A DNA stretch of 28,413 bases from Microcaldota archaeon (GTDB taxonomy: Archaea; Micrarchaeota; Micrarchaeia; Norongarragalinales; UBA8480), in the NCBI GenBank assembly GCA_023247085.1, contig JAHFHC010000009.1, positions 1-28,413 of the forward strand, read 5' to 3'. Position 1 is the stretch's first letter, and each line of letters begins with the position of its first letter. The notes beneath the pieces are model-generated. The model worked only from the letters and a program-made list of their open reading frames with translations. It was not told where the DNA came from and ran no database searches. The translations under genes and the position numbers were made by a program. Below, one piece after another: positions 12,441 to 27,330 of the stretch.

Positions 12441-12471
12441 TTTTAAAGGTCGGTTGGGTATAATTGTTTTT

Positions 12472-13101
12472 ATGACAGTAAGTGAAGGAAAAATGGATCG
12501 CGTGGCACTGAGAGCTACTGCTGAGAGTCATTTGAAGTTGATTGGTATGCAGCGGTATGGTTGGCTTCATCCGGACTTGCAAGTTGCGTTACACGCCGCG
12601 CATAAGAAAGGCAAAATTACTGACGCAAATTTGACGGCGCTTGGCGATTTGTTAAAAAGAACCACTGTTGACCGAATGAAACCACATTTAGCTCAAGCAA
12701 ATACAATAGCTAAACGCGCTTCAGGCCAAGAAGCCCTCGACCACTTAATGCACGCAGTTAACCGGGTTATTAAGCCGCCATTACATGGCGAAGTAGCTAA
12801 AGTCCTCGAAGAAGCCAAAAGTTTTCACGCTCAAAACCTAGGAGATAAAAGCAACAGACGGAGATACACGGCGCTTCACACCGCAATTCAGTCAGGAGAA
12901 TTAAATGAACCTGCTAAAAGAGTTTTAAAAAACGCAATTGGCGCACTTGAACACAACATGGGAAATCATGAATTAGAATTATCGAATCCAGAACCACCTA
13001 CAGCAAAAAGAGCAAAGAAAATAAGACGAGAGCTTAAAGACGCAAAATATAAAATCGGACTATTAGAAGCAGCAATTAGAAGTGCAACTGAAACTAAATA
13101 G
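12472..13101 (+). CDS. Orphan helical protein with the IGMxRYG domain
   Basis: A 209-residue helical, basic protein without a known family. Residues ~17-100 closely resemble the N-terminal ~90 residues of the kinase-like protein at 17573: both contain LIGMQRYGWL / QIGMRRYGFL, then LQVA-x-H, then an L-x-x-LG motif and a QEALDHLMH / TNALMHLLE stretch. So this is a shared domain, here without the kinase part. The C-terminal half is charged, with KRAKKIRRELKDAKYK suggesting nucleic-acid or acidic-protein binding. ATG 12472 is chosen because TTTTAAA at 12441-12447 is 28 nt upstream; a TTG at 12454 and an ATG at 12493 are alternatives. Confidence 0.7.
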   Translation: MTVSEGKMDRVALRATAESHLKLIGMQRYGWLHPDLQVALHAAHKKGKITDANLTALGDLLKRTTVDRMKPHLAQANTIAKRASGQEALDHLMHAVNRVIKPPLHGEVAKVLEEAKSFHAQNLGDKSNRRRYTALHTAIQSGELNEPAKRVLKNAIGALEHNMGNHELELSNPEPPTAKRAKKIRRELKDAKYKIGLLEAAIRSATETK

Positions 13102-14112: not shown

Positions 14113-14790
14113 CTAATAGTTTAAAATCGGTTTATTTGGGGTTTTCCATAAGTTTGTAAAAAACTCGTCGTTTCTTACTATTTCCCATAATTTAGATGGC
14201 TCGTGTTCGAGTTCGCGTTCCAAGTGAAATAGCATTTCTCGAAATTGTTCTAAGTCACCTTGAATGTGGTGAAGCATCTCTTCATCCATTTCAGGATCGT
14301 ATAACATAACTTCACCGTTAGTTGACACGTAAATGTTGTCGTATGCCACGTTGCCATGCCGTAAGCCAGCTTTGCCTAGTTTCAGCAAATTGTCAGCTAG
14401 GCTCTTCAATGTGTTCAGCTTACGCGAGTTTGGTACTTTCACATCATCTAAATAATCCGCAAGGGATCGAACAGGGTCATAAGTAGTAACTAAGTAAAAA
14501 CGGTGCGTGTCTTGGTCAGAAACATTAAGCACAGGTTGTGGCACATTCACGTCATTTTGCGAAGCGGCAAAGAGAAAAGCAAAGTGGTTATGGCGAGTAC
14601 GTCGCACGTGAAAGAAACGCGTTTCGTCCCCATTTTTTAACATCAATGGGACAGAAAGTGGCTTAAGCGTCTTAACGGTTTCAATAGCGGACTGAAAAAG
14701 CGGGTCGTTTAAAATAAAGGCGTACTTTCTATCGATGGTTACATCGTGCCCCCCTAGTTTACGCTGCTCAAATCTAGACATTTCAAACAT
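14113..14790 (-). CDS. Kinase-like protein 1, catalytic Asp replaced (pseudokinase candidate)
   Basis: A 225-residue protein with a eukaryote-type/RIO-like kinase C-lobe. The catalytic-loop equivalent is HGNVAYDN (145-152), where H and the metal-binding Asn are kept but the catalytic Asp is Asn. It is followed by GEVMLYDPE (159-167), a DFG-like motif reading DPE. The N-lobe is short and divergent (VRRTRHNHFAFLFAA), with no clear glycine loop. The same plan occurs in the genes at 17573-18639 and 26494. A TATA-like CTTATAAAAG lies at 14817-14826 (minus strand) and a run of seven C at 14802-14808 lies between it and the start; an ATG at 14781 is a second possible start. Kinase-fold relation is inferred from motif order; activity is doubtful. 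Confidence 0.7.
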   Translation of the reverse strand: MFEMSRFEQRKLGGHDVTIDRKYAFILNDPLFQSAIETVKTLKPLSVPLMLKNGDETRFFHVRRTRHNHFAFLFAASQNDVNVPQPVLNVSDQDTHRFYLVTTYDPVRSLADYLDDVKVPNSRKLNTLKSLADNLLKLGKAGLRHGNVAYDNIYVSTNGEVMLYDPEMDEEMLHHIQGDLEQFREMLFHLERELEHEPSKLWEIVRNDEFFTNLWKTPNKPILNY

Positions 14791-14898
14791 AAATGTCGAA
14801 TCCCCCCCTACAATATTCTTTTATAAGGTACATCCGACTCACTTATAATGGTTTATAGCAAAAAACCGACAAGGTGACGCATTTATTGGCTCGGACAG

Positions 14899-14942
14899 TA
14901 TATAAAATCGGCTTTTCGACTAAAAATGAAAATAAAGGAGAG
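14899..14942 (+). promoter_or_regulatory. TATA box and ribosome-binding site of the alkD-like gene
   Basis: TATATAAAA at about 14899-14907 predicts a transcript start near 14929, followed by AAGGAGAG at 14935-14942, 6 nt before GTG 14949. This is one of the few genes here with a clear leader and Shine-Dalgarno site, and it decides the start. Confidence 0.5.
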
Positions 14943-14948
14943 AATGGT

Positions 14949-15701
14949 GTGAAAGTAACAAAGATGAAAAATAGCACATATGAAGAAATTAGAACTGCAT
15001 TGCTAGAATTAGGAAACCCAAAAAAAGCTGAGTCAAGCAAGCGGTTTTTCAAAACCGGCAAGGGCAAATATGGCCACGGGGACAAATTCATTGGCGTAAC
15101 TGTTCCTGAACAACGCGCAGTGGCTAAGAGATTCGTTTATGCTTCGCTTTCAACAATAGAACAGTTATTAGAAAGCGAAATACACGAATTTCGGCTAACT
15201 GGTTTGCTTATTCTAGTTGAGCAGTTCAAACAAACCAAAGCAAAAGGGACAAAAATCAAAGAGATGAAGCAAAAGCAGATTTTCAACTTTTACTTAGCGC
15301 ATATCGACCACATCAACAATTGGGATTTGGTTGATTTATCTGCACCAAACATAATTGGAAAATACTTATCGGACAAAGACAAGCGATTCTTGTACCGGTT
15401 GGCTGAATCAAGTGATTTATGGAAAAAACGAATTGCGATTGTGGCAACGTATACATTTATTCGAAACGGAATTTTTGAGCCAACATTGGAAATCAGTGAA
15501 AAGCTGCTCGAAGATAAGCTTGATTTGATTCACAAGGCAGTTGGTTGGATGTTACGAGAAGTTGGCAAAAAAGACGCAAGTGTTCTAGAAAAATTTCTAA
15601 ACAAACATTGTAAAAAAATGCCGCGCACAATGCTGCGTTATTCAATTGAACGATTTCCAGAAGCAAAAAGAAAGCACTTTTTGGTTTGTTCTAAGGCTTG
15701 A
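14949..15701 (+). CDS. AlkD-like DNA alkylation repair protein
   Basis: A ~250-residue HEAT-like-repeat DNA glycosylase of the AlkD family, which removes alkylated bases such as 3- and 7-methylpurines without flipping them into a pocket. The family features are the N-terminal FFKTGKGKYGHGDKFIGV, the W/D pair in NNWDLVDLSA (W125, D129), and the Arg in LWKKRIAIV (R161) about 32 residues later; these match the catalytic Trp, Asp and Arg of AlkD. A GTG at 14874 would add 25 residues, but a strong TATA box (TATATAAAA, about 14899-14907) lies inside that extension, and AAGGAGAG at 14935-14942 is a ribosome site for GTG 14949; ATG 14964 is also possible. Confidence 0.88.
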   Translation: MKVTKMKNSTYEEIRTALLELGNPKKAESSKRFFKTGKGKYGHGDKFIGVTVPEQRAVAKRFVYASLSTIEQLLESEIHEFRLTGLLILVEQFKQTKAKGTKIKEMKQKQIFNFYLAHIDHINNWDLVDLSAPNIIGKYLSDKDKRFLYRLAESSDLWKKRIAIVATYTFIRNGIFEPTLEISEKLLEDKLDLIHKAVGWMLREVGKKDASVLEKFLNKHCKKMPRTMLRYSIERFPEAKRKHFLVCSKA

Positions 15702-15708
15702 GCTAACA

Positions 15709-15715
15709 TTTTTTT
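15709..15715 (+). terminator. T-run terminator candidate after the alkD-like gene
   Basis: A run of seven T directly follows the stop codon at 15701, in the 12-bp gap to the convergent ORC1 gene. Short T-tracts end archaeal transcription; no hairpin is seen. Confidence 0.35.
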
Positions 15716-16907
15716 ACATTAATAAATTTTGTTCAATAATTTTTCTGATTTTTTCAGCCGGATAAACTGGTTTTATCAATGTAGCTTGGCCGCGAATCCC
15801 CTTGCCAGAATGCACGCTTACTAAAAGACCAAGCACTTCGAGTTCGTGCAAGTATTCACGGTACCAGCGAGCTGTGCGTGGCTCCTTGCCCATCTTCTTG
15901 CACATTGAAGCATAACGATCGTACACTTCTCCAGAAAAATAAAGTTTTTCTCCATCATCTTCAACAAGCTTCTTGTACTGCACATCTTGCGAAACAATCG
16001 ACAAAGCGTAGAGCACAAGTTGTAAGTGTTCTGGAAGTGAACCAATTAACTCGCGCGCCTTGTCTTCATCAGCAGCTAGGCGTGCAGCTTCAACTTCCTT
16101 GTCAGTTAATTTCTTAGAATCATTAGCAAGCGCTAGTTCACCAGCGCGTAATAAAAGCGTAAGCGCATAACGCGCATCGCCACTTTCACTAGCTGCAATT
16201 GCAGCCGCTAAGTTCAACGCGCTTTCTTCAACTACATTTTCTTGAAATGCAAGTGGAAGGCGCTGTGATAAAATCGACTGCAATTGAAGCGCATTGTACG
16301 GAGTAAAAACAATTTCTTCTTCACAAAGTGAACTCCGGCTACGTGCATCTAGTTTTTGTTTAAAAGAAATTTTGTTCGAAATCCCAAGCATCGAAATACT
16401 GCCATGTTTCAACTCATCATTAGCACGAGTCAACGTATATACTAAACTATCAAGATCTTTTACCACGTCAATTTCATCTAACACAAGCACCGCGTGCGTG
16501 TTTTTCTTATCTAGCACATCTAAAAGTTTTTCGTACAAAATTGAAAACGAGTGGCCAGTCTGCGCAATAGAAGAGTCAAAATCAGTAAGCGCTTTTTGCA
16601 CTATCTTATAACGCGAATCATACACCCTACAATTCAAGTAAATGCCAGCTACAGAAGCTTCTTTTATGTCAGGGAGCTTTAAAATGGCTTTTTTGGCACA
16701 AATAGACTTTCCGCTGCCTGTTTTACCATAAATAAGGGCGTTTGTTGGCCTTTTGTTTTCAACTAGGGGGGCTAGGCAAGTTAGGATTTTGCGTAATTCA
16801 TTTTCTCGGTGAAGTAGCACATCTGGCACGTAGTGTGGCGAAAGCGCGCTTTTATCCTTGAAGATGCCGTCTCCTTTTTTCAATAAGTCCCTAAAAGTTG
16901 AGTCCAT
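15714..16907 (-). CDS. orc1: ORC1/Cdc6 replication initiator
   Basis: A 397-residue AAA+ protein that binds origins and loads the MCM helicase. Seen in order: Walker A YGKTGSGKS (60-68), Walker B LVLDEID (141-147), sensor 1 N178 in LGISNK, sensor 2 R246 in GDARYAL, and a C-terminal winged-helix domain (~290-397) containing RTARWYREYLHELEVLGL and GKGIRG. All ATPase residues are intact, so it should be active. Length is typical. A TATA-like CATAAAAATC sits around 16940-16948. The gene is divergent from sepF. Archaeal origins often lie beside orc1 genes, so the 136-bp gap upstream may hold one, although no standard origin recognition box was found. Confidence 0.95.
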   Translation of the reverse strand: MDSTFRDLLKKGDGIFKDKSALSPHYVPDVLLHRENELRKILTCLAPLVENKRPTNALIYGKTGSGKSICAKKAILKLPDIKEASVAGIYLNCRVYDSRYKIVQKALTDFDSSIAQTGHSFSILYEKLLDVLDKKNTHAVLVLDEIDVVKDLDSLVYTLTRANDELKHGSISMLGISNKISFKQKLDARSRSSLCEEEIVFTPYNALQLQSILSQRLPLAFQENVVEESALNLAAAIAASESGDARYALTLLLRAGELALANDSKKLTDKEVEAARLAADEDKARELIGSLPEHLQLVLYALSIVSQDVQYKKLVEDDGEKLYFSGEVYDRYASMCKKMGKEPRTARWYREYLHELEVLGLLVSVHSGKGIRGQATLIKPVYPAEKIRKIIEQNLLM

Positions 16908-17043
16908 AACAACATGCTAATTTATTTAGGTTGATTGGGCATAAAAATCATTTTATAGGCATTCACTGCGGCTAAACATAGGTTTTTAATTTATTGCACA
17001 GTAAATAATGCGTAAGATTTTTTTTCAAGGTGATTTATAAAAA
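16908..17043. other. AT-rich gap between orc1 and sepF; possible origin region
   Basis: This divergent, very AT-rich region holds promoters for both genes. GTTTTTAATTTA at about 16983-16994 is a candidate TATA box for sepF, and AAGGTGA at 17028-17034 is its ribosome-binding site. The position next to orc1 suits a replication origin, but no inverted TTCCA-type ORB pair was seen, so that role is only contextual. Confidence 0.3.
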
Positions 17044-17406
17044 ATGGGAATTTTTCAAAATTTATCCAGCGCCCTAGGCGTAAGGAAGGAAATGAACGTA
17101 GAAGACTTCATGTCAGCTGCTGAAGCTGAAGAAGTTGACGTAATGCACCAACAAGCTGATTTTTACGTAAAACCAATTGCATTGCAAACAGATGCTGACC
17201 TCAAAGTAGTTGAAGAGGAATTAACGAACAAGAACCTCGTATTGCTCAACATAACTCCAATTGCACGCAATCCAAATAAACTAAAAGCAGCAGTTGAACA
17301 CTTGCGCAAGTTTACAAGCGGCATTAACGGAGACATTGCTAGAATTGACGAAGACAAAATAATGTTAACTCCTGCAAATGTCAAAATCGTGAAGAAACGC
17401 AAGTAA
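17044..17406 (+). CDS. sepF: SepF, archaeal cell-division protein
   Basis: A 120-residue SepF homologue, the membrane anchor and organiser of FtsZ in most FtsZ-bearing archaea. The N-terminal MGIFQNLSSALGV is a short amphipathic helix suited to membrane binding; a linker (~20-35) precedes the compact SepF core (~38-117), which contains the signature DADLKVVEEEL, LLNITPI and SGINGDIARIDEDKIMLTP. The length is near that of other archaeal SepF proteins. The ribosome site AAGGTGA lies 9 nt before the ATG. The gene is divergent from orc1, joining division and replication functions at one locus, and is followed by a T-rich terminator. Confidence 0.92.
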   Translation: MGIFQNLSSALGVRKEMNVEDFMSAAEAEEVDVMHQQADFYVKPIALQTDADLKVVEEELTNKNLVLLNITPIARNPNKLKAAVEHLRKFTSGINGDIARIDEDKIMLTPANVKIVKKRK

Positions 17407-17430
17407 AAACAAAAAACGATTCTTCTCGTC

Positions 17431-17505
17431 CCAATTTATTTCCTATTTTATTTTTTCTTTCTTTTTTTCCTTTGTTTCTTCTATTATGTTTACTTTTTAA
17501 CTTAC
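17431..17505 (+). terminator. T-rich terminator tract after sepF
   Basis: A ~75-bp pyrimidine-rich stretch with several runs of 4-7 T begins 25 nt after the sepF stop codon. Serial T-runs without a hairpin are the usual form of archaeal terminators. Confidence 0.6.
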
Positions 17506-17572
17506 TCTACTTTTATGCTTCACGTCATAAAGTAACTATTTTTATAACATAGTAATAGAATGTAATACCAGT

Positions 17573-18184
17573 ATGGCAATTGAACTTGAAAAAGTTAAAG
17601 CAGCTGAAGCATACTTTAAACAAATTGGCATGAGGCGCTATGGGTTTCTCCCTTTAGAATTACAAGTAGCGTTCCATCAAATAGCAAGAGGAAACCCGGC
17701 GCATCAAGCAAAATTAATTGAGCTAGGCAGGAATTTTGAAAGGCTTAATGACCCAAAACGCGCAATACAATATACAACAAGCGCACTTGAGGTAATGAGA
17801 ACGCATGGTCGTACAAATGCATTAATGCACTTACTAGAAAAAACTAAAATGGAGCTTAACCAAACAAGCTCAGCTAAACCTAAACTTCGAAAATTGGGGC
17901 TTGAGTGGAGGACTAGTAAAGTTCGTTTACCTGGAATTCGGGGATTAGTTTCAAAACCGCAAGTAAGAATAACTCATTGGGCTAAACATAGCCCGAAAAA
18001 GCTACTGGCCGCGCTTGAAGCAAAACCCAGTGCTAGTTTTCCAGACGCAGTACCAAAATTTACAGTTCACCCTTTTGGAAGATATTTGCTTATAGCACGA
18101 AGATTTAAACGCAAAGGACATTACCCCGGAAGTAACGATTATCACCCCCCCCCGCACATATTTTCGATCGATTGGTTGAATTAG
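17573..18184 (+). CDS. Kinase-like protein 2, N-terminal part before frameshift
   Basis: This is the first part of what was probably one ~355-residue protein ending at 18639. Residues ~11-92 form the domain shared with the orphan protein at 12472 (QIGMRRYGFL, LQVAFH, LIELG). A linker (~95-140) follows, then an N-lobe-like region with strands FTVHPFGRYLLIARRFKRK. In the given sequence the frame enters a run of nine C (18145-18153) and stops 11 codons later at 18184, giving 203 residues. One extra C, or a -1 slip, would join it to the next frame as ...YHPPPAHIFDRLVELV, and the joined region aligns with the intact protein at 26494. A TATA-like TTTATAA at 17541-17547 is ~29 nt before ATG 17573. 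Confidence 0.7.
   Translation: MAIELEKVKAAEAYFKQIGMRRYGFLPLELQVAFHQIARGNPAHQAKLIELGRNFERLNDPKRAIQYTTSALEVMRTHGRTNALMHLLEKTKMELNQTSSAKPKLRKLGLEWRTSKVRLPGIRGLVSKPQVRITHWAKHSPKKLLAALEAKPSASFPDAVPKFTVHPFGRYLLIARRFKRKGHYPGSNDYHPPPHIFSIDWLN
18145..18153. repeat. Homopolymer run of nine C at the frame change
   Basis: Nine consecutive C in an otherwise AT-rich region; it is the longest G/C run seen in the window (the next is seven). It lies exactly where the coding frame of the kinase-like gene shifts by -1. Such runs are prone to replication slippage and to length errors in sequencing. Confidence 0.9.
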
Positions 18185-18639
18185 TCAAAAAGAAAAATGC
18201 GATTCTTGAGATGCCGGTTGCATTAGTTCACCATCCAACTAAAGGCATGCTAGTTGTCACGCTATGGAAGAAACACGAACGTACACTAGAACAAGCATTT
18301 TTGGCACGGGATTTGTCACTCAAAGAAAAAGAAGCACTTGCAATAAAAGCAGTTAGACAATTAGCTAGGTTAAACTCAGCTGGTTATTCTCACTTGCACC
18401 CGTTTGCTAGAAACTACGTGGTTTTGAAAAATGGCGAAGTACGGTTAATTGACCCAACATTACTTATACCGCATAAAGATAACTCGGATTTTAGATCCGG
18501 CACGCGAGGCTTAATACAACAGCTTTCAACAGGGGTTGAAAACACGCCAGAACGATTATCAAATAGCGAATTTACTAAAATGTACAATCGAATTAGAGAA
18601 GAATATTTAAGAGAGCTTAGAAAACGAATGCGCCAATAG
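18172..18639 (+). CDS. Kinase-like protein 2, C-terminal part after frameshift
   Basis: This frame holds the C-lobe of the kinase-like protein. A TTG at 18172 could start a 155-residue product, but the frame is open back to 18136 through the C run, and the upstream residues (AHIFDR) belong to the fold, so it is better read as a continuation of the gene at 17573. In the 155-residue numbering the catalytic-loop equivalent is HLHPFARN (74-81), with His in place of the catalytic Asp but Asn kept, and the DFG-like motif is VRLIDPT (90-96). It resembles the protein at 26494 over its whole length (TLEQAFLARDL vs TLETALIHADL). The last residues are basic (LRKRMRQ). It is a separate gene only if the run length given here is correct and no frameshifting occurs. 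Confidence 0.65.
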   Translation: MVELVKKKNAILEMPVALVHHPTKGMLVVTLWKKHERTLEQAFLARDLSLKEKEALAIKAVRQLARLNSAGYSHLHPFARNYVVLKNGEVRLIDPTLLIPHKDNSDFRSGTRGLIQQLSTGVENTPERLSNSEFTKMYNRIREEYLRELRKRMRQ

Positions 18640-18681
18640 TGATAAAAAAGACTCAATGCTATAATAATTGTTCAAATAAAC

Positions 18682-19725
18682 ATGGTTAATTTAGATGCTT
18701 TGGCTTTGAAAATGGAACTTACGCCTGAAGCCGCCATTGGCATTGTTCAAAAAGAGGTTAATAGAAAAGGCTGGAAGAAATTCGATTTAAGCGACATTTT
18801 AACCGTTTATACTCCATTTTACATTTTTTCTTTTGACGTAATTGCAGAAGGCGGCGCGCCACCAGGCAAAGCTGCGCTTAATGCAAATACAGGCGAAATA
18901 AACGAATTCGTCCCATCGCTTCTTGAACGTCCAATTCAAAAACTACGCAAAACAGCAGAGGGAATTGAAGCTGAAATTGAACCAACTAATATTAAAGAAA
19001 GTGAAGTGGAAAAAGTCGCGAGTGTAAAAATCGCTAATATGCTGGGAGCAAAGCGAGAGAATATCGTTATTTCAGCGATTTCAAAAATTTATATTCCAAT
19101 GTTTCGTTTGTGGCTTGATGTTGCAGGGGATAGTTTCAAAATTGAGATCGACGCTGCGCTGGGCTATCCAACGGGGTTGGAGTTGATTCCAAAGCGAGAA
19201 AAAACCTGGGATGAAAGCACAAGTGAAACAATCCGCAAAATGCAATCTCCTTCCGGAATAGCACAATTAGCAAGTGCAACAGGTGGCGAAATAGCAAAAG
19301 TTGCAGGTGGAAAAGCCGATAATAAGTACATCCAATGGGCAATTATTGGTGCAGTCATACTAGTGATTGGCTTTTTTGCTTTACAGTCGCTTAACTCTAA
19401 AACAGACTGTGCAGTTGACAACGAATTTTTATCAAAGCCAGAATACCTAGGGTTATTTGGTAGCCGTAAGCTAGTGCCACAAGAAGCGGACGCAGATACA
19501 CTTTACGTAACTGGGTCTTGCAAATTTTCATCAGGAGAGAATGACAAACTGGTGATTGTTTCAGTTGGAGTAAAACAAAACGGGTTGCCTTTATCTGCTA
19601 CAACTATACAAGCAGTTACGCGGCCTGATTCGGAAATCACTAAAACGTTCAATGTAAACTGGACGCGGACAGATGCCGAGTTAACTGGCGGCTATGAATT
19701 AACTGTTGACAAGTTAGTAGGTTGA
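18682..19725 (+). CDS. Single-span membrane protein, function unknown
   Basis: A 347-residue protein with a cytoplasmic or N-terminal domain of two similar halves: VYTPFYIFSFDV (42-53) with ALNANTGE, and IYIPMFRLWLDV (136-147) with IDAALGYPTG. This looks like a duplicated PepSY-like alpha/beta unit that follows a helical segment. One transmembrane helix follows at ~217-236 (WAIIGAVILVIGFFAL), and then a ~110-residue C-terminal domain with two Cys (C243, C277) that could form a disulfide outside the cell. No enzyme motif is seen. The small membrane-protein gene begins 12 nt after its stop, so the two are likely co-transcribed. ATG 18712 is an alternative start. Confidence 0.7.
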   Translation: MVNLDALALKMELTPEAAIGIVQKEVNRKGWKKFDLSDILTVYTPFYIFSFDVIAEGGAPPGKAALNANTGEINEFVPSLLERPIQKLRKTAEGIEAEIEPTNIKESEVEKVASVKIANMLGAKRENIVISAISKIYIPMFRLWLDVAGDSFKIEIDAALGYPTGLELIPKREKTWDESTSETIRKMQSPSGIAQLASATGGEIAKVAGGKADNKYIQWAIIGAVILVIGFFALQSLNSKTDCAVDNEFLSKPEYLGLFGSRKLVPQEADADTLYVTGSCKFSSGENDKLVIVSVGVKQNGLPLSATTIQAVTRPDSEITKTFNVNWTRTDAELTGGYELTVDKLVG

Positions 19726-19737
19726 TTATCGTTATCT

Positions 19738-20025
19738 ATGAAATTATATGAAGCAGTGCAAACTCAATTGTCAGAAGGCAAGTCTATTTCGCAAATTAAA
19801 GTTGATTTGAAAAAGAAAGGGTTTTCGCCTCGCGCAATTAGCCTTGCGATTAGTCAGTGCATTCAAGCTGAGTTAAAAAAACGCAACACAAGCGAACCAG
19901 GCAAACTTGCCGAAAATGACCGTTTCACTGAGCTCAATAATCTTAACAAATTACGCATGTACGCTACAATAGGTATACTAATTGCAATACTGATTATCAC
20001 GGGCGCATTGCTTGCTTTATTTTGA
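19738..20025 (+). CDS. Small C-terminally anchored membrane protein
   Basis: A 95-residue protein with a helical N-terminal domain (LSEGKSISQIKVDLKKKGFS, 11-30, a helix-turn-helix-like pattern), a charged linker, and one C-terminal transmembrane helix (~75-95) ending only at the last residue, so the body faces the cytoplasm like a tail-anchored protein. It starts 12 nt after the preceding membrane-protein gene and probably works with it. The 3' end overlaps the convergent trmJ gene by 9 nt. Function unknown. Confidence 0.65.
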   Translation: MKLYEAVQTQLSEGKSISQIKVDLKKKGFSPRAISLAISQCIQAELKKRNTSEPGKLAENDRFTELNNLNKLRMYATIGILIAILIITGALLALF

Positions 20026-20757
20026 TAGTTTTAGCTTCTTTGCTGTGCGAGAAAGTACTGCCATTAAGGTTTGCGCTTCAGTTGCAGCTATGTTTGCTCG
20101 GCCTATAACTCGCTTAAATGCTAGTTTTGCTTTTTGCGGGTCATGAAGCTCGGACTTGCTTTTCACTGCTTCATCAACAAGTTGTGAAAATAAGTAAGTC
20201 AAGGCATCTATTTCTTTTTTTTCAGCAGCTGCGTATTTTGGCTTGACGTGCCTAGAGTAGAAAAGTGAATAAAGTACAACTGCAACTGAATGAGATAAGT
20301 TTAGAATCGGATGCGCAGGGTCAGCTGGAATAGTGGCAAGAACATCACATGCAGCTAAATCGCTTTGCGATAACCCGTTTCCTTCTGAACCAAAAACAAT
20401 TGCAACCCGCTTTCCAGCTACTAGTGGATTTAACTCTGGCAACGAAACACAATTTTTCAAATTACCCGTAAACCGATTGATAACGCCAGTTGTGCCAATT
20501 ACTAGGTCAAAACCACTTGTCGCTTTTTCAAGGGAATCAAAGCTCTTGGCTTCGTCAAGAATTTCTTTAGAGTGCTTTGCAAACTTATACGCTTCAAAAT
20601 CAATTGCGCATTTAGGTTCAACGAACGCTAAGTCAGTGACTCCAAAGTTTTTAACAACGCGGGCAACCATTCCAACGTTCATTGAATACTCTGGCCGTAC
20701 CAAAACTACGCGTGCAGGTAAAGGGCGCTTGACTTTGCGTGAACCAGCGAATTCCAT
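20017..20757 (-). CDS. trmJ: TrmJ-like SpoU/SPOUT RNA 2'-O-methyltransferase
   Basis: A 246-residue SPOUT methyltransferase that most likely methylates the ribose of nucleotide 32 in tRNA, using S-adenosylmethionine bound in a trefoil knot. Motif 1 has N27 and R33 (YSMNVGMVARVVKNFG), motif 2 is FGSEGNGLS (122-130) and motif 3 is LNLSHSVAVVLY (152-163). The N-terminal VVLVRPEYSMNVG and the C-terminal helical extension (~185-246) are typical of TrmJ rather than TrmH. A GAGGAG ribosome site (20767-20772, minus strand) lies ~9 nt before the ATG. Confidence 0.9.
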   Translation of the reverse strand: MEFAGSRKVKRPLPARVVLVRPEYSMNVGMVARVVKNFGVTDLAFVEPKCAIDFEAYKFAKHSKEILDEAKSFDSLEKATSGFDLVIGTTGVINRFTGNLKNCVSLPELNPLVAGKRVAIVFGSEGNGLSQSDLAACDVLATIPADPAHPILNLSHSVAVVLYSLFYSRHVKPKYAAAEKKEIDALTYLFSQLVDEAVKSKSELHDPQKAKLAFKRVIGRANIAATEAQTLMAVLSRTAKKLKLSK

Positions 20758-20873
20758 TGAATTTCTCCTCGAAGAATACTACAGTTTAAAAACTTTGCAA
20801 GTTTAATTACAAAAAAACGAATAAAACAAGATGCACAAGTCATTTATAGAGCTTAAAGAGATATAAGAATAAT

Positions 20874-22139
20874 ATGTCGAAAGTTTTGGTAAAAACTGCT
20901 TTATTTGCGTTTCTAGTACTAGTCGTACAAATACATGCTATTATACCGAGCCAACAAGCGCTTGACTTAACGCACGCGTACATCCGTGACGGCGAAGAAG
21001 CAACTATCCTTCAAAGGCCTTATCTCATCGATGGCAAAAACTATTACGTGATCTACTTCCACCCCGCAACTGACCCCACCATAAGAAACACAGTGGCAGT
21101 TGTAGATGCAGATAATGGAATCCTAGTAGAAGATGAAACCACGCTTGCTAAAGTGTATTCTTTTGATTCTAAACTAACATTTCTCAACGAGTTTTTAAGT
21201 GAAAACAAATTGTCATTCGCGGAGTTGAAAAGGGCTTTGGATTCTGGCGAAAGTAGCCGGCAACAAGCACAAACTAGCTTGGAACAAGTTGATTCGAATT
21301 TGGCAAAAATCGACGAAACAATTACAACTATACAAGTCGCTCACTCTCAATTCACAGTACAAATTGAAAAACTCAAAGAAGAAGTCAACGATGGCATAGA
21401 AACACAAGATTTGTTTGACCAAGAATACTCAAGCCAAACACTAAACACAATAGTTACGCGTTACAACACTACTTTCAAAACGCTGTTTACTACAGTTAAA
21501 AACGGTGAAGATTATCAAAAGGCAATTATAAACAAGTCAAATGAATTAACCCAAAAAGGGGTAGACCAAAACCAATTCAAGCCCGGATTACAAACTGCTT
21601 TTCTCATTGGGCTAGATAAATTCCCCACAAGTTCAGCGCTTCAAAGTGCGTTAAATAACTTTGGAGTAATTAATTCACAACAAACGCAAAATAGAATAAA
21701 CGACTCAATTAGGAGTTACTTATACCGCAAACAAAAAACAGACTCAGATGAAGCGGTTAATGGGATAAAAGCAACAACAGAAGAGATCATTAGGAGAAAA
21801 AGCGAACTCGTTGAATGCATTGCTGTGACTCCTGAAATTAGTAAATTAGAAAAGAACTGGAAAGACGTATTATCTGCACAAGGGGCAAACCAATTCAGTG
21901 CAGTAATTGCTAATGTTACACTTACTCAAACTCAATTGTCAAAAGTAAAACGAGAAATTGACAAGTGTAACGTGGTTGTAACGCCAACAAAACCGCAGAC
22001 AAGCGACAATACTAATCTCTATATTGGACTCGTGCTGGTTTTAATTGTGGGCTATTTTGCTTTGAAGATGCTTTCAAAGAAGAAGCCAGATGAACCAACA
22101 ACAATGCAAGAGCCAACACGGCAAAACTTATTCGGATAA
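20874..22139 (+). CDS. Membrane-anchored coiled-coil surface protein, function unknown
   Basis: A 421-residue protein with a signal peptide (about 1-22, ending IHA) and a C-terminal transmembrane helix (~382-400, IGLVLVLIVGYFAL) followed by a basic, short cytoplasmic tail (SKKK). Residues ~25-95 form a small alpha/beta region (YYVIYFHPA, NTVAVVDADNGILV) that resembles a PepSY-type fold. About 110-350 is mainly helical, with coiled-coil-like stretches (SLEQVDSNLAKIDETI). Two cysteines (in VECIAVT and DKCNVVV) may pair outside the cell. A TTTATA box at 20843-20848 is 28 nt before ATG 20874, indicating a leaderless transcript. No family recognised. Confidence 0.75.
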   Translation: MSKVLVKTALFAFLVLVVQIHAIIPSQQALDLTHAYIRDGEEATILQRPYLIDGKNYYVIYFHPATDPTIRNTVAVVDADNGILVEDETTLAKVYSFDSKLTFLNEFLSENKLSFAELKRALDSGESSRQQAQTSLEQVDSNLAKIDETITTIQVAHSQFTVQIEKLKEEVNDGIETQDLFDQEYSSQTLNTIVTRYNTTFKTLFTTVKNGEDYQKAIINKSNELTQKGVDQNQFKPGLQTAFLIGLDKFPTSSALQSALNNFGVINSQQTQNRINDSIRSYLYRKQKTDSDEAVNGIKATTEEIIRRKSELVECIAVTPEISKLEKNWKDVLSAQGANQFSAVIANVTLTQTQLSKVKREIDKCNVVVTPTKPQTSDNTNLYIGLVLVLIVGYFALKMLSKKKPDEPTTMQEPTRQNLFG

Positions 22140-22191
22140 AGTGCCGATAAGCAAATTGAGTTAAACACACAACAAAAAATTGCAGAAATCA

Positions 22192-22851
22192 TTATGCCCT
22201 TTTGGCTACTAGCACGAATATTTTTTCAAAAAAGAATGAGTCAGTTGAGTGGACTTCAGTTGTGAATCCTTGTTTTTTTAACTCAGCTATTGTCTGTTCT
22301 GAGTTGTTCAAACTACTTTGTAATAAAAGTAAAGCTCCATTTGGCTGTAAGTAATTAGAAAAAGTTGAGAGAAACGGGTCTAAGACGGTTCTGCCTGTTG
22401 CCCCGCCGTGCCACGCCATTGACTCATCGTCCAGTTTTTCATGAGCCTCAACTGGCACATAAGGCGGGTTAAAAACAATCACGTCAAATTTACCCGTTAT
22501 GTTTTCAAACAAGTTTGACTGGACAAAAACAATTTTTTTCTCCACGTGGTTTGCTTTTGCATTTTCTTGAGCAGTTGACAGCGCAGCTTTGTTCAAGTCA
22601 ACTGCAGTTACGTGGTCGACTTCGCTTTTCTTTGCAGCAACTATAGCTTGGATACCTGAACCAGTGCCTAAGTCAAGTACACTACCAACCGCAAATTGGC
22701 CTACTGCTTTAGCTAGAAGAAAAGAATCTTCAGCTGGACAGTAAACTGGAGAAGAAACAGACAAATGTACATCTTTAAACGTTAATTCAGTAAACGCATT
22801 TTGAAGTTGGCGCGCTTTGCCTAATGGGTTAAACTTTTGAGTTGGCTTCAT
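22192..22851 (-). CDS. HemK2/Mtq2-type glutamine methyltransferase
   Basis: A 219-residue class I S-adenosylmethionine methyltransferase. The SAM motif is VLDLGTGSGIQ (58-68), the acidic residue after beta-2 is D85 (TAVDLN), and the catalytic NPPY motif is at 128-131. The N-terminal VYCPAEDSFLL (37-46) matches the archaeal/eukaryotic Mtq2 (HEMK2) branch, which methylates the glutamine of the GGQ motif in release factor aRF1, so translation termination is the likely role; some relatives modify other proteins. Its start overlaps the end of the PIN-ATPase gene by 4 nt (ATGA), so it is the second gene of that operon. Confidence 0.88.
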   Translation of the reverse strand: MKPTQKFNPLGKARQLQNAFTELTFKDVHLSVSSPVYCPAEDSFLLAKAVGQFAVGSVLDLGTGSGIQAIVAAKKSEVDHVTAVDLNKAALSTAQENAKANHVEKKIVFVQSNLFENITGKFDVIVFNPPYVPVEAHEKLDDESMAWHGGATGRTVLDPFLSTFSNYLQPNGALLLLQSSLNNSEQTIAELKKQGFTTEVHSTDSFFFEKIFVLVAKRA

Positions 22852-24260
22852 CGCTTCCAGTGTGGCCTTGGCCCTTGCTTGGTCTTGAACGTATCGCGTG
22901 CAGTAACCGGATAGACAACGGTTTCTTCACCGAAAGTGTAAATCTCGTATTCAAGTGCATTTGTTTCAAAATCACGCACTTCAATTACAGGTCTCGCTAA
23001 GTCACGTTCAGTCATGCCGCTTGGCGTCTTCACGGCAAATTTAAGAGTATAAACTTTGGAAATACTTCCCTTGCTAACGAACACAATCGTGTCAATTATT
23101 TGAGGTATCATTCCGAGTTCAACTTTGCCAATGAAACGCTGGACTGCATCAATTGCTTTAGAAGCATGAACTACACCTACCATTCCAATTCCAGCTAATC
23201 GCAAGTCAGTAAAAGTGATGAAATCCACCGTTTTACGCACTTCATCGTAAACTGTATAATCAGGTCGGACTAGCAAAAGTACATCATTTATTATCGAAGG
23301 GTCTGTTCCAATTGCATATTGAGTGATGTCATCGCCAACTTGTAAATCCCTCGGGCTTTCAACTGTTTTGACAATCTTGTCACAAGCAGCATGATAATCA
23401 GCAAGTGCAGTTGCAAGAGTTGACTTGCCGCTCCCTGGCGGGCCAGCTACTAGTACCCCTTCTGCGCGGTTTGTAAGTGCTTCAAACAACTTCTTTGACA
23501 ACTTATAGTCATGTAAGCCCAACTTTACAATTGGTCGAACGGCAGTTAGTTCAAAAGTGTCTGAAAGCGGTGGACGCGTGCACGTAACACGGTATTCAGC
23601 TGCTTGTATTACAGTTAAACCACTTTGGTCGATTTCAATAAACGAGTTGGGCGACCTACGTGCAAATTCAACGCATTCTTGCGCGATTTTTTCTAATTCT
23701 TTTCGAGTAACTGGAGAGTCACGGATTTCAACTAATTTGAATTCCCCGGGTTTACCTTGTTTTGCACGTGGCGTGATCCCTTCTTTTAAATGAAGTGACA
23801 TTGTGTTTGGCGTAAAGTACTTTGTAAGCGAAAATTCAAGTTTGGTGATCACTGGTTGCAAGTAAAGGACATTAATCCCTTGGGCGCTTGCTACTTCAGA
23901 TTGAACTTTGTCAGTTGTAATCAATTGACCCTTGTGTTCAAAAGCCAATTGGCGTATTTTTGAGTCAATTTCTCCGAATTTTGCACCTTCAATTTCAGAT
24001 GCAGTTGGTCTTTCGCCAACAAATTCAAGGGTAATTGTACCTTGCGCTGCAAGTGAAGTTAATTGACGGAGTTCAGTTAATCCTGAAAACCCAATTTCTT
24101 TACCGCTATTAGCTTGGTATTCTAATTCAGCAACTACGCTATTGTGTACTAATACATGCGGGTGCTTTGCTTCTAAGTTAACTAATTTTTGGGTTATTCG
24201 CCCATCAATCAAAGCACCAGTGTCTGGCACTATGACTATACTATTTTCTATTGTAGACAT
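22848..24260 (-). CDS. PIN-domain/PilT-like ATPase fusion
   Basis: A 470-residue fusion known across archaea: an N-terminal PIN nuclease domain (~8-135) with acidic residues D13 (VPDTGALID), E45 (VVAELEY) and D117 (ITTDK), and a secretion-type ATPase domain (~245-415) with Walker A GPPGSGKST (273-281), Walker B-like TVYDEVRK (336-343) and H365 in VHAS. Family members often carry a C-terminal KH domain and are longer; here the protein ends soon after the ATPase, so the KH domain appears to be missing. A role in RNA processing or quality control is suspected for the family but unproven. An A/T-rich TATA-like region centred ~28 nt upstream (about 24285-24295) suggests a leaderless transcript. 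It is followed by the Mtq2-like gene with a 4-nt overlap. Confidence 0.88.
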   Translation of the reverse strand: MSTIENSIVIVPDTGALIDGRITQKLVNLEAKHPHVLVHNSVVAELEYQANSGKEIGFSGLTELRQLTSLAAQGTITLEFVGERPTASEIEGAKFGEIDSKIRQLAFEHKGQLITTDKVQSEVASAQGINVLYLQPVITKLEFSLTKYFTPNTMSLHLKEGITPRAKQGKPGEFKLVEIRDSPVTRKELEKIAQECVEFARRSPNSFIEIDQSGLTVIQAAEYRVTCTRPPLSDTFELTAVRPIVKLGLHDYKLSKKLFEALTNRAEGVLVAGPPGSGKSTLATALADYHAACDKIVKTVESPRDLQVGDDITQYAIGTDPSIINDVLLLVRPDYTVYDEVRKTVDFITFTDLRLAGIGMVGVVHASKAIDAVQRFIGKVELGMIPQIIDTIVFVSKGSISKVYTLKFAVKTPSGMTERDLARPVIEVRDFETNALEYEIYTFGEETVVYPVTARDTFKTKQGPRPHWKR

Positions 24261-24513
24261 AAATCTAATTCGATTCCTCTAAATTTTTTTATTTTTAAAT
24301 AATTTTACTTTTTTTCACTATAATTTTATTACTGAATTACTGCTTAAAATAAGAAGTCTTTGAGCCTTATAGTAAAATATAAGTAAATTAATAGAAAAAA
24401 GCCAGCCTATAAACGTTTGCATATCAAAAAGAAGCCGGTTTTTAAGAGTTCATGCCGTAAAGCTATTGATTCCCGAGTTTTAACAACAAAATAAGAAAAA
24501 AGTGAAAAAATAA
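24261..24513. other. AT-rich regulatory gap between divergent genes
   Basis: This 253-bp region separates the PIN-ATPase from the multi-HTH gene. It contains an inverted repeat CTTATA-GTAAAA-TATAAG (24366-24383) and a TATA-like GAGTTTTAAC at about 24475-24484 for the rightward gene. No coding frame or structured RNA could be supported. The length suggests a regulated promoter. Confidence 0.4.
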
Positions 24514-25425
24514 ATGCCAGGTGGAAAAAGTAAACTAACAAAAGCACACGGGCTTGTTTTACGCGATTTACTCAAAGGCAGAACTCAAGGTGAAATAGCA
24601 AGAGATGAAAAAGTCGGCGTAACCGGAATTGGAATGCGACTCGCTACAATGAAACCGTTCCTAGATCCAAAAACATTAAAACGAATTGAAGAGGCACGCA
24701 AAGCAAGGCAAAATCAATTAACCGAACAAGATCGCCGCATTTTAGCAAAAACACTTGCAGGAAAATCTGCGGCACAAGTAGCTCAAGAAGAATCACTTGA
24801 TTCAAAAGAAACTGTGCGCAGTGCACTTAGAAAAATTCGAAGAGTAGATCCACAAGCAGCGAAACGCCTTTTTCCTAGACTTACAAGAAAGCACGGCGAT
24901 ATTATTCGACTGCGCTTACAAGGAAAAAATTATACTGAAATTGCTCAAGTGCTTGGTTACAAGAGTAGTCAAGTTGTACGAAATAAATTTCTGGCGTTAT
25001 TGAAATACCTGCATCCAAGAACTGTGGAACGACTGCATGTTGGCGAAAAAATTCCGGCGAATGTTTCTCTAAGGCAAAGGATCGTTGAAGAGTTTTACAG
25101 ACAACTCAATAGACATTTAACCCGAGGCACAATGAATGCAACTGCTCGAGTGTTTGGCAAAGATAGACACATAATTAAGCATCATCTTGGAATGGCTGGA
25201 ATAAATTTCGCTGGCGAAATTCAACGCCAACGATTTAATTTTTTGCTAAGAGTAGCTGAAACAATGCACTTGCCTAATAGAATTGCGCGTCAACAACTTG
25301 GAGTTAGCCAATCACTATTGAATAGGTATCGCAAGCGAGTTGAAGCTGGAGAACACTTGCCTGGACCACTAGAATTAGTTGAAAAACCCGAAGCTCAACA
25401 ATGGTGGGATATGCAAATGCCATAA
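24514..25425 (+). CDS. Multi-helix-turn-helix DNA-binding protein
   Basis: A 303-residue basic protein built from several helix-turn-helix-like units, each with a 'GK/GR-x-x-x-x-IA/VA' pattern: LLKGRTQGEIARDEKVGVTGIG (~19-40), TLAGKSAAQVAQEE (~80-93), RLQGKNYTEIAQVLGYKSSQ (~134-153), a fourth around TMNATARVFGKDRHIIKHHL (206-225), and a fifth around NRIARQQLGVSQSLLNRY (255-272). The units resemble sigma/LuxR/resolvase HTHs. No catalytic domain is present, so it probably binds a long or repeated DNA site as a regulator or architectural protein. The frame stays open after its stop into the next small gene (see that entry). Confidence 0.7.
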   Translation: MPGGKSKLTKAHGLVLRDLLKGRTQGEIARDEKVGVTGIGMRLATMKPFLDPKTLKRIEEARKARQNQLTEQDRRILAKTLAGKSAAQVAQEESLDSKETVRSALRKIRRVDPQAAKRLFPRLTRKHGDIIRLRLQGKNYTEIAQVLGYKSSQVVRNKFLALLKYLHPRTVERLHVGEKIPANVSLRQRIVEEFYRQLNRHLTRGTMNATARVFGKDRHIIKHHLGMAGINFAGEIQRQRFNFLLRVAETMHLPNRIARQQLGVSQSLLNRYRKRVEAGEHLPGPLELVEKPEAQQWWDMQMP

Positions 25426-25494
25426 ATACGAGAAGAAGGCGCAGGACCTGCAAGGATAAATTTATCAGTTAGAAATGAAACAATTCAAAAAGAT

Positions 25495-25719
25495 TTGAAG
25501 TTGTTTGACGACTCCATAAAAGAAGCAGTTCTACAAGCGGCAAAAAATCACACTGACGTGGTTGGAAATCGCGATGAAAAAATAATGAGGGCAAAATTCG
25601 ATAACGCAATTAGGCAAAGGGATAGACTTAGAAAAGCAAAGAAGAGATATATCGAACTCGAAAGAGCGTTTCGTGCTAAATACAGGTTACCCATGCACGA
25701 AGTATTAAATAAAAATTGA
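25495..25719 (+). CDS. Small basic helical protein, function unknown
   Basis: A ~74-residue charged helical protein (QRDRLRKAKKRYIELERAFR) starting at TTG 25495 or TTG 25501, with ATG only at residue 30. It is in the same frame as the multi-HTH gene and the frame is open from that gene's TAA (25423-25425) onwards, so it may instead be a detached C-terminal end. A palindrome GATAAATTTATC (25455-25466) lies between them and could supply a TATA box. No family recognised; start uncertain. Confidence 0.45.
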   Translation: MKLFDDSIKEAVLQAAKNHTDVVGNRDEKIMRAKFDNAIRQRDRLRKAKKRYIELERAFRAKYRLPMHEVLNKN

Positions 25720-25753
25720 AGGTAAAAGGGTTTTTATCTTATACTTGGTTTAC

Positions 25754-25772
25754 TTATTTGCAGAGCAAATAA
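25754..25772. promoter_or_regulatory. Perfect palindromic operator candidate at the XRE gene start
   Basis: TTATTTGC-AGA-GCAAATAA is an inverted repeat with 8-bp perfect arms and a 3-bp spacer. It ends 2 nt before ATG 25774 and lies over the expected transcript start, ~27 nt after a TATA-like TTATAC at 25739-25744. The position suits binding by the dimeric XRE-type protein encoded next, hence autorepression. The palindrome is observed; its function is inferred. Confidence 0.6.
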
Positions 25773-25773
25773 C

Positions 25774-26466
25774 ATGGAACAATTAAAAGTTAAAATTGCA
25801 GGAGAAATTGCACTTTCAGATAATCCAGGCGCAGCGATGAAAAAGTGGCGCGAAGTATTCGGCGTCTCGCAAACTGAACTAGCACAGCATTTGGATATCA
25901 CTCCTTCAACAGTAAGTGACTACGAGGGAAACCGGCGCAAAAGTCCAGGTATACAAGTAGTTAAGCGGTTTATCGACGCATTGTTCACAATTGACTCATT
26001 AAACGGCGGCAAAATAGTTTCTCAGTTTAAAGAAGTCAGTGAAGGCGCAGAATCATATTTTCAAGTGTTTAATTTTCCACGCGAAGTAAGTGGGAAGGAA
26101 TTAGCTAAAGTGCTTGATGCAAAAATAGTTACTGGCGAAGCAAAATTACAGCAAAGTAAAGGCGTGTTCGGGTGCACAATGCTTGACAGCTTAAAAGTGA
26201 TTTTAGAATTACCATACGAAAACTTCGTGAAGGTTTATAGTAACACTTCACAACGCGCGCTTTTGTTTACACGAGTAGAAACTGGGCGTAGCCCAATGGT
26301 TGCAGTGCGCGTAACGCCAATTAAACCAGCGCTCATCATTTTACATGATGTTGATGAAGTTGATAAGCTAGCGGTTAAAATTGCAGAAGCAGAAAAAATA
26401 CCGTTATTAACAACTAAAATGCCGCTAGAAGAAGTAAAGAAGAAGCTAGGAGAGCTAAGCACTTAA
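25774..26466 (+). CDS. XRE-type HTH transcription regulator with C-terminal sensor domain
   Basis: A 230-residue regulator found in similar form in many archaea. The XRE helix-turn-helix is at ~24-60: FGVSQTELAQHLDITPSTVSDYEGNRRKSPG with the recognition helix ITPSTVSDYEG. The remainder (~75-228) is an alpha/beta domain (KVILELPYENFVKVYSN, MVAVRVTPIKPALIILHDV, then IPLLTT) that may bind a small ligand; C134 is the only cysteine. A perfect palindrome touches its start codon, suggesting that it regulates itself. The downstream kinase-like gene begins 27 nt after the stop, with its TATA-like box overlapping the stop codon, so it may be under separate control. Confidence 0.85.
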   Translation: MEQLKVKIAGEIALSDNPGAAMKKWREVFGVSQTELAQHLDITPSTVSDYEGNRRKSPGIQVVKRFIDALFTIDSLNGGKIVSQFKEVSEGAESYFQVFNFPREVSGKELAKVLDAKIVTGEAKLQQSKGVFGCTMLDSLKVILELPYENFVKVYSNTSQRALLFTRVETGRSPMVAVRVTPIKPALIILHDVDEVDKLAVKIAEAEKIPLLTTKMPLEEVKKKLGELST

Positions 26467-26493
26467 AAAAACACGCGTACTTATTTTTACAGT

Positions 26494-27330
26494 ATGTTTA
26501 GAAGCAACCCAAATCTCATTGACCACTTGCGAGGTAAGTACCATCCCTCAAATGCAGTGAAACGAACTGCTGACCGTAGTTTTAGTACGTACACTTTCAA
26601 AGATGGAAGTAAATTAAAAGTAAGGACAAAATTTGAACGTAAGTTATTTTACCCAAAATTGTGGCGGGTGAAGAGATTCATTAGACTATGGAAAGCAGGG
26701 GTTGAACTACCGACTTTTACTAGGGGGGTTAAAACAGCTGCTTATGATATGAGTGGAATCAAGGTTATAACCCGAACAAGCACAAAACCATTTAAAAGAA
26801 ACAGCAAATATGCGCCGGATACAATTGATAAAATAACGAGTATTTTAGGAAGTAGAGTAAGGATTGAACCACCATTATTTGAATTAATTACTAGCGACGG
26901 AAAAAGCTTACTTGGAACAAGAGAGTTACATGGACAAACACTTGAAACGGCATTAATACACGCTGATTTAGAAAGTCAACTTTCTCTAGTAGGACAAGTT
27001 GCAAAGACAATGGCAAAATTGCACGCACGCGGGTTAACGCACGGCCACATGCACGGAAAAAACGTTTTTGTATCCAAAGGCAAACTAATATTGACTGATC
27101 CAAAATACATCCAAGCCATGAAAATTCCAACGCCAGAGCAAGCTGAACACGATGCAAGAAGCGCTGAACTAGCTTTTGACTTTATGCCTATAAGTTCCCA
27201 GATGCCAAACGAAGTACAAATAGATGTGCACCTTGCAACGCACCGCTTATCAGAAAATCATGCGCAACACTTTATAGAACAGTATATACGAGCCTATAGA
27301 AAAGAATATGAAAAAAGAGCTAGAACCTAA
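26494..27330 (+). CDS. Kinase-like protein 3, catalytic Asp replaced (pseudokinase candidate)
   Basis: A 278-residue protein with a kinase-like arrangement, intact in this case. An N-terminal basic segment (~1-80) is followed by an N-lobe-like region (VITRTSTKPFKRN, 91-103), a helix (APDTIDKITSIL), a hinge-like strand region (LFELITSDGKSLLGTREL), and the C-lobe: catalytic-loop equivalent HGHMHGKN (183-190), with His where kinases have the catalytic Asp, and DFG-like LILTDPK (198-204). It aligns with the joined frames at 17573-18639 from about residue 85 on. A CTTAAAAAA box at 26462-26470 lies 28 nt upstream of the ATG, indicating a leaderless transcript. A G6 run occurs at 26723-26728 without disturbing the frame. 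Catalysis is doubtful; nucleotide or partner binding is possible. Confidence 0.7.
   Translation: MFRSNPNLIDHLRGKYHPSNAVKRTADRSFSTYTFKDGSKLKVRTKFERKLFYPKLWRVKRFIRLWKAGVELPTFTRGVKTAAYDMSGIKVITRTSTKPFKRNSKYAPDTIDKITSILGSRVRIEPPLFELITSDGKSLLGTRELHGQTLETALIHADLESQLSLVGQVAKTMAKLHARGLTHGHMHGKNVFVSKGKLILTDPKYIQAMKIPTPEQAEHDARSAELAFDFMPISSQMPNEVQIDVHLATHRLSENHAQHFIEQYIRAYRKEYEKRART

What the first reader, a model, noticed from the sequence alone, without database searches (positions are those of the whole stretch)
14113..27330. Three diverged kinase-fold proteins that all lack the catalytic aspartate
Genes at 14113-14790, 17573-18639 and 26494-27330 share the same C-lobe order. The catalytic-loop equivalents read HGNVAYDN, HLHPFARN and HGHMHGKN: the first His and the last Asn are kept, but the catalytic Asp (as in HGD/HRD) is Asn, His and His. 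The DFG equivalents read YDPE, IDPT and TDPK, so the metal-binding Asp is kept and Phe-Gly is lost. Three diverged copies in 13 kb imply a lineage-specific expansion under a shared constraint. They could be pseudokinases or enzymes with a changed chemistry (for example AMPylation or ligand binding).
Basis: partly seen in the sequence, partly recalled or inferred. Interest (0 to 1): 0.75.

Follow-up and report, generated by a model that had tools for sequence, protein, structure and literature searches.

The report
Archaeal pseudokinase-like family lacking catalytic aspartate
In a tiny-genomed archaeon, a group of very different proteins shaped like protein kinases have all swapped the two residues normally used for catalysis for others that are just as strictly conserved, so they are probably ATP-binding regulators rather than ordinary kinases, or possibly enzymes with another chemistry.

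Summary
The motifs are real: HGN (14113-14790), HLH (17573-18639) and HGH (26494-27330), with the following Asn and the DxP Asp kept. The second gene is split in this assembly by a frameshift in a C9 run; its same-genus ortholog is intact. All three are kinase-superfamily proteins by profile-profile comparison with canonical archaeal kinases (probability 96-99%; shuffled controls at most 1.2%). They are not decayed: dN/dS is 0.11-0.27. The second and third belong to a patchy family of the window's Micrarchaeota order (8 of 29 genomes, one partial member outside it). In 13 diverse members only six columns are invariant, five of them active-site positions: beta3 Arg (not Lys), H-x-His (not Asp), Asn and Asp. 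One relative keeps both Lys and Asp. The first gene (Asn) is a separate, older lineage. Best reading: nucleotide-binding pseudokinases, like KSR (beta3 Arg) and ROP5 (HGH) by convergence; an unusual enzyme is not excluded. The second protein also carries a genus-only N-terminal module that elsewhere is fused to a PP2C phosphatase. The three are not a recent 13-kb expansion. New variant of a known kind; function inferred.

The parts
14113..14790 (-). W1: kinase-like protein, 225 aa; catalytic Asp replaced by Asn (HGNVAYDN), metal Asp kept (YDPE)
   Evidence: hhalign with Kdo-like kinases 97.6%, E 3e-12; same-genus ortholog L012 with the same motif, dN/dS 0.11
14335..14358 (-). W1 catalytic-loop equivalent HGNVAYDN
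   Evidence: translation
17573..18184 (+). W2 5' part: genus-specific helical N-terminal module (about 17573-17857) plus N-lobe with beta3 Arg (LIARRFK)
   Evidence: conservation
18145..18153 (+). C9 run where the W2 frame breaks; only C9/G9 run in the 892-kb genome
18172..18639 (+). W2 3' part: C-lobe with HLHPFARN (18391-18414) and IDPT (Asp at 18451-18453)
   Evidence: ortholog L011/L108 in one frame, HSHPFARN; dN/dS 0.20 and 0.23 on either side of the break
26494..27330 (+). W3: kinase-like protein, 278 aa; HGHMHGKN, TDPK, beta3 region VITRTST
   Evidence: ortholog L004/L013 HGHMHEKN, dN/dS 0.27
27040..27063 (+). W3 catalytic-loop equivalent HGHMHGKN (His for Asp)
   Evidence: translation
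12454..13101 (+). second window copy of the genus-specific N-terminal module (12472-12771), here without a kinase domain

Best explanation
These are protein-kinase-fold proteins of the Bud32/RIO/Kdo side of the superfamily that have become pseudokinases. Shown: kinase homology; invariant replacement of the beta3 Lys by Arg and of the catalytic Asp by His in the family of W2 and W3; retention of the catalytic-loop Asn and the metal-binding Asp; purifying selection. Inferred: the kept Asn/Asp pair and the beta3 Arg still hold Mg-nucleotide in the cleft, as in KSR2 (beta3 Arg, one Mg on Asn and Asp) and ROP5B (HGH, ATP bound but not transferred). The protein then acts as a nucleotide-dependent binding or scaffold module, not as a phosphotransferase. 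In W2 this domain is tethered by a genus-specific helical module that another protein of the same genome couples to a PP2C phosphatase, so W2 may work in the same assembly or pathway as that phosphatase (inferred). W1, with Asn for Asp, is an independent pseudokinase of the same superfamily.
For: Profile of the family against the PDB: 422 distinct sequences up to E 1, the 60 shown all kinase-domain proteins; best hit KSR1 at 2.7e-5, ROP5 at 1e-3. hhalign: family vs Kdo-like 99.0%, vs Bud32 97.4%; W1 and W3 alone 97.6% and 96.2% vs Kdo-like; five column-shuffled controls at most 1.2%. In 13 members the invariant columns are one Pro (12/12 rows) and beta3 Arg, His, His, Asn, Asp (13/13 each), while members are about 17-37% identical to one of them. 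The one member with Lys also has Asp (L048). dN/dS 0.11-0.32. A low-confidence W2 model matches Bud32/PRPK and RIOK3 best (Z about 10 over 102-114 residues). Module shared with PP2C above Pfam cut-off. Precedents: PMC4718504 (KSR2, ROP5B), PMC3682881 (basic residue for catalytic Asp), PMC12599244 (ActPs2: beta3 Arg and Asp to Asn).
Against: No biochemistry. Nucleotide binding rests on a few side chains and analogy. Structure models are poor (mean pLDDT 43 and 47), so pocket geometry is untested. Beta3 Arg alone does not inactivate: it is normal in active choline kinases (PMC1821047). Some proteins first called pseudokinases turned out active (SelO, SidJ, KSR2). Invariance of the His is also what a new catalytic residue would give. 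W1's beta3 residue is ambiguous in alignment.
Confidence: 0.55

Rival explanations
1. An enzyme with changed chemistry: the pocket binds ATP in another orientation and transfers AMP, or uses ATP to activate a carboxylate, with the invariant His and beta3 Arg as catalytic or phosphate-binding residues, as SelO and SidJ do with a kinase fold.
For: His and Arg are as conserved as the metal ligands, as expected of active-site residues. SelO also lacks the catalytic Asp and keeps Asn and the DFG Asp (PMC8097203, PMC12599244).
Against: SelO and SidJ keep the beta3 Lys, which this family has lost. W1 and W3 give no SelO match in Pfam at E up to 1. No substrate or operon clue.
Confidence: 0.2
2. A still active phosphotransferase that uses His as base, or substrate-assisted catalysis without a base, opposing the PP2C phosphatase that shares W2's module.
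For: No canonical Ser/Thr kinase passes the Pfam cut-off in the three genomes of the genus, yet PP2C phosphatases occur there on the same module. Beta3 Arg is tolerated in active choline kinases.
Against: RIO1 and Bud32 are present with canonical residues and could be the kinases. PP2C and the family do not co-occur beyond chance in the order: 3 genomes shared, 1.7 expected. Active kinases with His for this Asp are not known to me.
Confidence: 0.14
3. Decaying genes: relics of canonical kinases on the way to loss.
For: W2 is frameshifted in this assembly; a relative keeps Lys and Asp; G091 holds a copy whose motif has eroded (HGHIALNV).
Against: dN/dS 0.11-0.32 for every ortholog pair, including both halves of W2. 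The same His recurs in four families of the order. The frameshift sits in the genome's only C9 run and the sister ortholog is intact.
Confidence: 0.04
4. Chance resemblance to kinase motifs in unrelated proteins.
For: Single-protein Pfam scores are below the gathering cut-offs and the models are poor.
Against: Profile-profile and structure-level results above.
Confidence: 0.03

Closest known systems
Bud32/PRPK (KEOPS kinase), RIO and Kdo/WaaP-type kinases
   Same: Same fold group and motif order; best profile and structural matches.
   Different: Those keep beta3 Lys and HGD; the family has Arg and HxH (W1: HGN). Below family cut-offs: for the W2 ortholog arch_bud32 13 bits against a cut-off of 125; Kdo 19.7 bits (W1) and 17.7 (W3) against 21.3.
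ROP5/ROP36 rhoptry pseudokinases (Toxoplasma)
   Same: Catalytic Asp replaced by a basic residue (HG[R/K/H], HGH) with Asn and metal Asp kept (in ROP5B); lineage-specific expansion; ROP5B binds ATP in a noncanonical way (PMC3682881, PMC4718504).
   Different: Eukaryotic protein kinase lineage, secreted effectors. Similarity here is convergent; common descent within a pseudokinase family is neither shown nor likely.
KSR1/KSR2
   Same: Beta3 Arg in place of Lys; KSR2 binds ATP with one Mg on Asn171 and Asp184 equivalents; KSR1 is the best PDB profile hit.
   Different: KSR2 keeps the catalytic-loop Asp (PMC4718504).
ActPs2 bacterial pseudokinases
   Same: Beta3 Lys to Arg together with loss of the catalytic Asp (to Asn, as in W1).
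   Different: Most have a deletion in the DFG motif and large insertions; actinobacterial (PMC12599244).
SelO
   Same: Kinase fold without the catalytic Asp, Asn and metal Asp kept; a model for changed chemistry.
   Different: SelO keeps beta3 Lys (WHLK), reads HGVMNTDN and DYG (PMC12599244), and has no Pfam match here.

Membership tests
Protein kinase-like (PKL) superfamily | Significant profile homology to known kinases | tested here: met
   with shuffled controls; profile built without W1 finds W1 at 6.8e-12
Protein kinase-like (PKL) superfamily | Two-lobed kinase fold | tested here: inconclusive
   Models have kinase topology and match kinases (Z about 10 over the C-lobe of W2), but mean pLDDT is 43-47 and no Foldseek hit passes E 0.001
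Pseudokinase (lacks at least one of beta3 Lys, HRD Asp, DFG Asp) | HRD Asp absent | tested here: met
   Asn in W1, His in W2, W3 and all 13 members of the family alignment
Pseudokinase (lacks at least one of beta3 Lys, HRD Asp, DFG Asp) | beta3 Lys absent | tested here: met
   Arg in 13 of 13 family members plus W2 and W3; ambiguous for W1
Pseudokinase (lacks at least one of beta3 Lys, HRD Asp, DFG Asp) | No phosphotransfer activity | not testable with these tools
   needs purified protein
Canonical Bud32 / Kdo / RIO kinase | beta3 Lys and HGD catalytic Asp | tested here: not met
Canonical Bud32 / Kdo / RIO kinase | Curated family score cut-off | tested here: not met
   W1 and W3 below the Kdo cut-off; W2 ortholog far below the Bud32 cut-off
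SelO AMPylase | Pfam match to SelO | tested here: not met
   no SelO row for W1 or W3 at E up to 1, nor for the family members at E up to 0.1
ROP5-type pseudokinase (analogy only) | Basic residue at the catalytic Asp with Asn and metal Asp kept | tested here: met
   W2, W3 and the family; W1 has Asn instead
ROP5-type pseudokinase (analogy only) | Common descent within the rhoptry kinase family | not tested
   parasite effectors were not fetched; the nearest relatives found here are archaeal Kdo/Bud32-type kinases

The most novel reading that the evidence does not exclude
The family is an enzyme class of its own: a kinase fold in which beta3 Lys/catalytic Asp were exchanged together for Arg/His to give another ATP-dependent reaction. 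In the window's genus it would be tethered through a new helical module to the same signalling assembly as a PP2C phosphatase, in an archaeon where RIO and Bud32 are the only canonical protein kinases found.
Probability: 0.13. Interest if true: 0.82.

Novelty: new variant of a known kind. Interest (0 to 1): 0.52.

Why it matters
Pseudokinases are reported from only about 2% of archaeal proteomes (PMC10211241). Here is a family in a small-genomed archaeal lineage in which the two catalytic residues changed together and the replacements are invariant, matching what ROP5 and KSR reached separately in eukaryotes. It gives a compact natural test of whether 'Arg plus His' makes a nucleotide-binding switch or a new enzyme, and a paralog with the Lys/Asp pair (L048) is available for side-by-side assay.

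Tried and rejected
Viral origin: two IMG/VR scans found no relative. Recent tandem expansion: rejected, since orthologs of all three exist in a sister species and the tree does not unite them. Functional link by gene neighbourhood: a family gene lies inside a ubiquitin-type cluster (G000:C5), and two genomes carry one in the XRE-NMD3-DUF2070 block, but that block is ancestral in the order and lacks the gene in the other genomes, with insertions in two different gaps. This looks like single-gene insertion, so I draw no functional link. Co-occurrence with PP2C across the order: not above chance. Defence system: PADLOC matches are weak generic kinase matches. The canonical APH-type kinase L187 in G003 seemed to carry the same N-terminal module, but the match is not significant. 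Whether Lys/Asp in L048 is ancestral or regained is unresolved (92/71 support). W1's beta3 residue is not settled by alignment.
Full report
Observation. The three motif sets are present as described. W1 (14113-14790, minus strand) reads HGNVAYDN and YDPE; W2 HLHPFARN and IDPT; W3 (26494-27330) HGHMHGKN and TDPK. W2 is not one frame: ORFs 17573-18184 and 18172-18639 are separated by a frameshift in a C9 run at 18145-18153. This is the only run of nine C or G in the 892,562-base genome. The same-genus ortholog in G003 is a single frame of 381 aa with no such run. dN/dS is 0.20 before and 0.23 after the break, so the break is an assembly error, a slippage state or a very recent event. Which of these it is cannot be told without reads.

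Kinase superfamily. Single proteins give only sub-threshold Pfam matches (Kdo 6e-4 for W1 and 2.5e-3 for W3). Profiles settle it. A 12-row family profile hits 422 distinct PDB sequences up to E 1, and the 60 shown are all kinase-domain proteins, led by KSR1 (2.7e-5), MELK and RIPK1. Nine of 12 members match the archaeal Bud32 model, best 9.3e-8. With hhalign against canonical kinases from the same class the family scores 99.0% (E 5.6e-18), W1 with its ortholog 97.6% (3.3e-12) and W3 alone 96.2% (2.2e-9), while five column-shuffled controls stay at or below 1.2%. A profile built without W1 finds W1 at 6.8e-12. AlphaFold models of W3 and of read-through W2 are poor (mean pLDDT 43 and 47). Their strand and helix order follows a kinase, and the W2 C-lobe aligns best with PRPK/Bud32 and RIOK3 (Z 10.2-10.0, rmsd 3.1-3.4 over 102-114 residues). 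That is consistent with, but not proof of, the fold.

The family. Profile searches of the window's genus, order and whole class (which equals the phylum here: 301 genomes) find the HxH type only in 8 of 29 genomes of the window's order, in four families, plus one partial and eroded copy outside. Motifs include HGHLHWDN, HGHPHYRN, HGHPHDNN, HNHPGPRN, HSHPFARN, HGHPKLDN, HGHPNREN, HNHPHFRN and HGHPHTGN. Other hits from the class are canonical HGD kinases (Bud32, RIO, Kdo-like) where I read them. In an alignment of 13 members, 17-37% identical to its first row in the related alignment, the invariant columns are one Pro (12 of 12 rows that have it), the beta3 Arg, the motif His, the His at the Asp position, the Asn and the metal Asp (13/13 each). 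The beta3 position is Lys in most of the canonical relatives that align there. One member, L048 in genome G024, which also has HxH copies, reads VCIKYC and HNDVHGEN, i.e. Lys and Asp together. It lies inside a supported clade of 10 H and 1 D (98/97) in a tree built without the two columns. The two residues thus change together in the cases at hand. Whether Lys/Asp in L048 is ancestral or regained is open.

How the three relate. W2 lies in the supported clade. W3 is a long branch near it, not firmly placed, though its profile match to the family is clear. W1, with Asn, sits on a separate long branch. They are 19-24% identical to one another. Each has an ortholog in G003: W1 about 92% identical with dN/dS 0.11, W2 75% with 0.20-0.23, W3 86% with 0.27. 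Two further copies are on other contigs (G000:C5 and G000:C36). Five such genes with three within 13.2 kb has a chance probability of about 0.006 (a posteriori). So there is a lineage-limited family, but not a recent local expansion.

Context. W3 is inserted between an XRE regulator and NMD3, and a relative in G021 between NMD3 and DUF2070. In the other genomes of the order this ancestral block is found without it. Another copy lies inside a ubiquitin-type cluster with E2, ubiquitin-like, JAB, RING-like and E1 genes; E2 is present in 26 of 29 genomes of the order. I read this as insertion of single genes into stable neighbourhoods, not as functional linkage. W2's N-terminal 95 residues are a helical module found only in this genus (8 copies in G000, 10 in G003, 1 in G004), fused to different C-terminal parts, among them a PP2C phosphatase above the Pfam cut-off (9e-15). 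No canonical Ser/Thr kinase passes the Pfam cut-off in the genus. RIO1 and Bud32 are present.

Mechanism. What is shown: fold family by sequence, coupled residue exchange, purifying selection. What is inferred: nucleotide binding and a regulatory, non-catalytic role. KSR2 has Arg for the beta3 Lys and holds ATP with one Mg on the Asn and Asp that this family keeps. ROP5B and ROP5C read HGH, and ROP5B binds ATP in a noncanonical way and is probably inactive (PMC4718504; PMC3682881). ActPs2 pairs beta3 Arg with Asp to Asn, as W1 may (PMC12599244). On the other hand beta3 Arg is normal in active choline kinases (PMC1821047), and SelO shows that loss of the Asp can go with AMP transfer (PMC8097203). 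I put pseudokinase with a nucleotide-binding regulatory role at 0.55, other chemistry at 0.2, unusual phosphotransfer at 0.14.

Novelty. A new variant of a known kind: pseudokinases are known in archaea but rare (PMC10211241). The literature searches made here (open-access papers only) gave no description of this family, and no Pfam, NCBIfam, PHROGs or PADLOC model covers it.

Noticed in passing
window 17573-17857 and 12472-12771; L161-L179: A 95-residue helical module (IGMxRYGWL...LQVALH...LGxxF) found only in this genus among the 29 genomes of the order, about 8-10 copies per better-sampled genome, fused to a pseudokinase, a PP2C phosphatase, hydrophobic segments or further copies of itself; no Pfam family.
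   Followed up: partly
L099 (G000:C5:14000-24500), L046 (G003:C41), L105 (G024:C3): Ubiquitin-type gene cluster in Micrarchaeota: E2 (UQ_con 5e-18), ubiquitin-like with GG end, JAB protease, RING-like protein, ThiF/E1; E2 found in 26 of 29 genomes of the order. A pseudokinase-family gene sits inside or near it.
   Followed up: partly
window 18145-18153: Only C9/G9 run in the whole genome, exactly at the frameshift of W2: assembly error, slippage or phase variation.
   Followed up: partly
L106 (G024:C85), 4628-5389: Family member with the canonical Lys and Asp (VCIKYC, HNDVHGEN) in a genome that also carries two HxH copies.
   Followed up: partly
window 24514-25425: Protein of repeated helix-turn-helix units next to the XRE regulator; the G003 ortholog is 401 aa against 303 aa here.
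   Followed up: no
window 6430-9323: Two adjacent secreted cysteine-rich repeat proteins (repeats like CSGTQCNPSNSSQYCYNGQW), diverged tandem copies.
   Followed up: no
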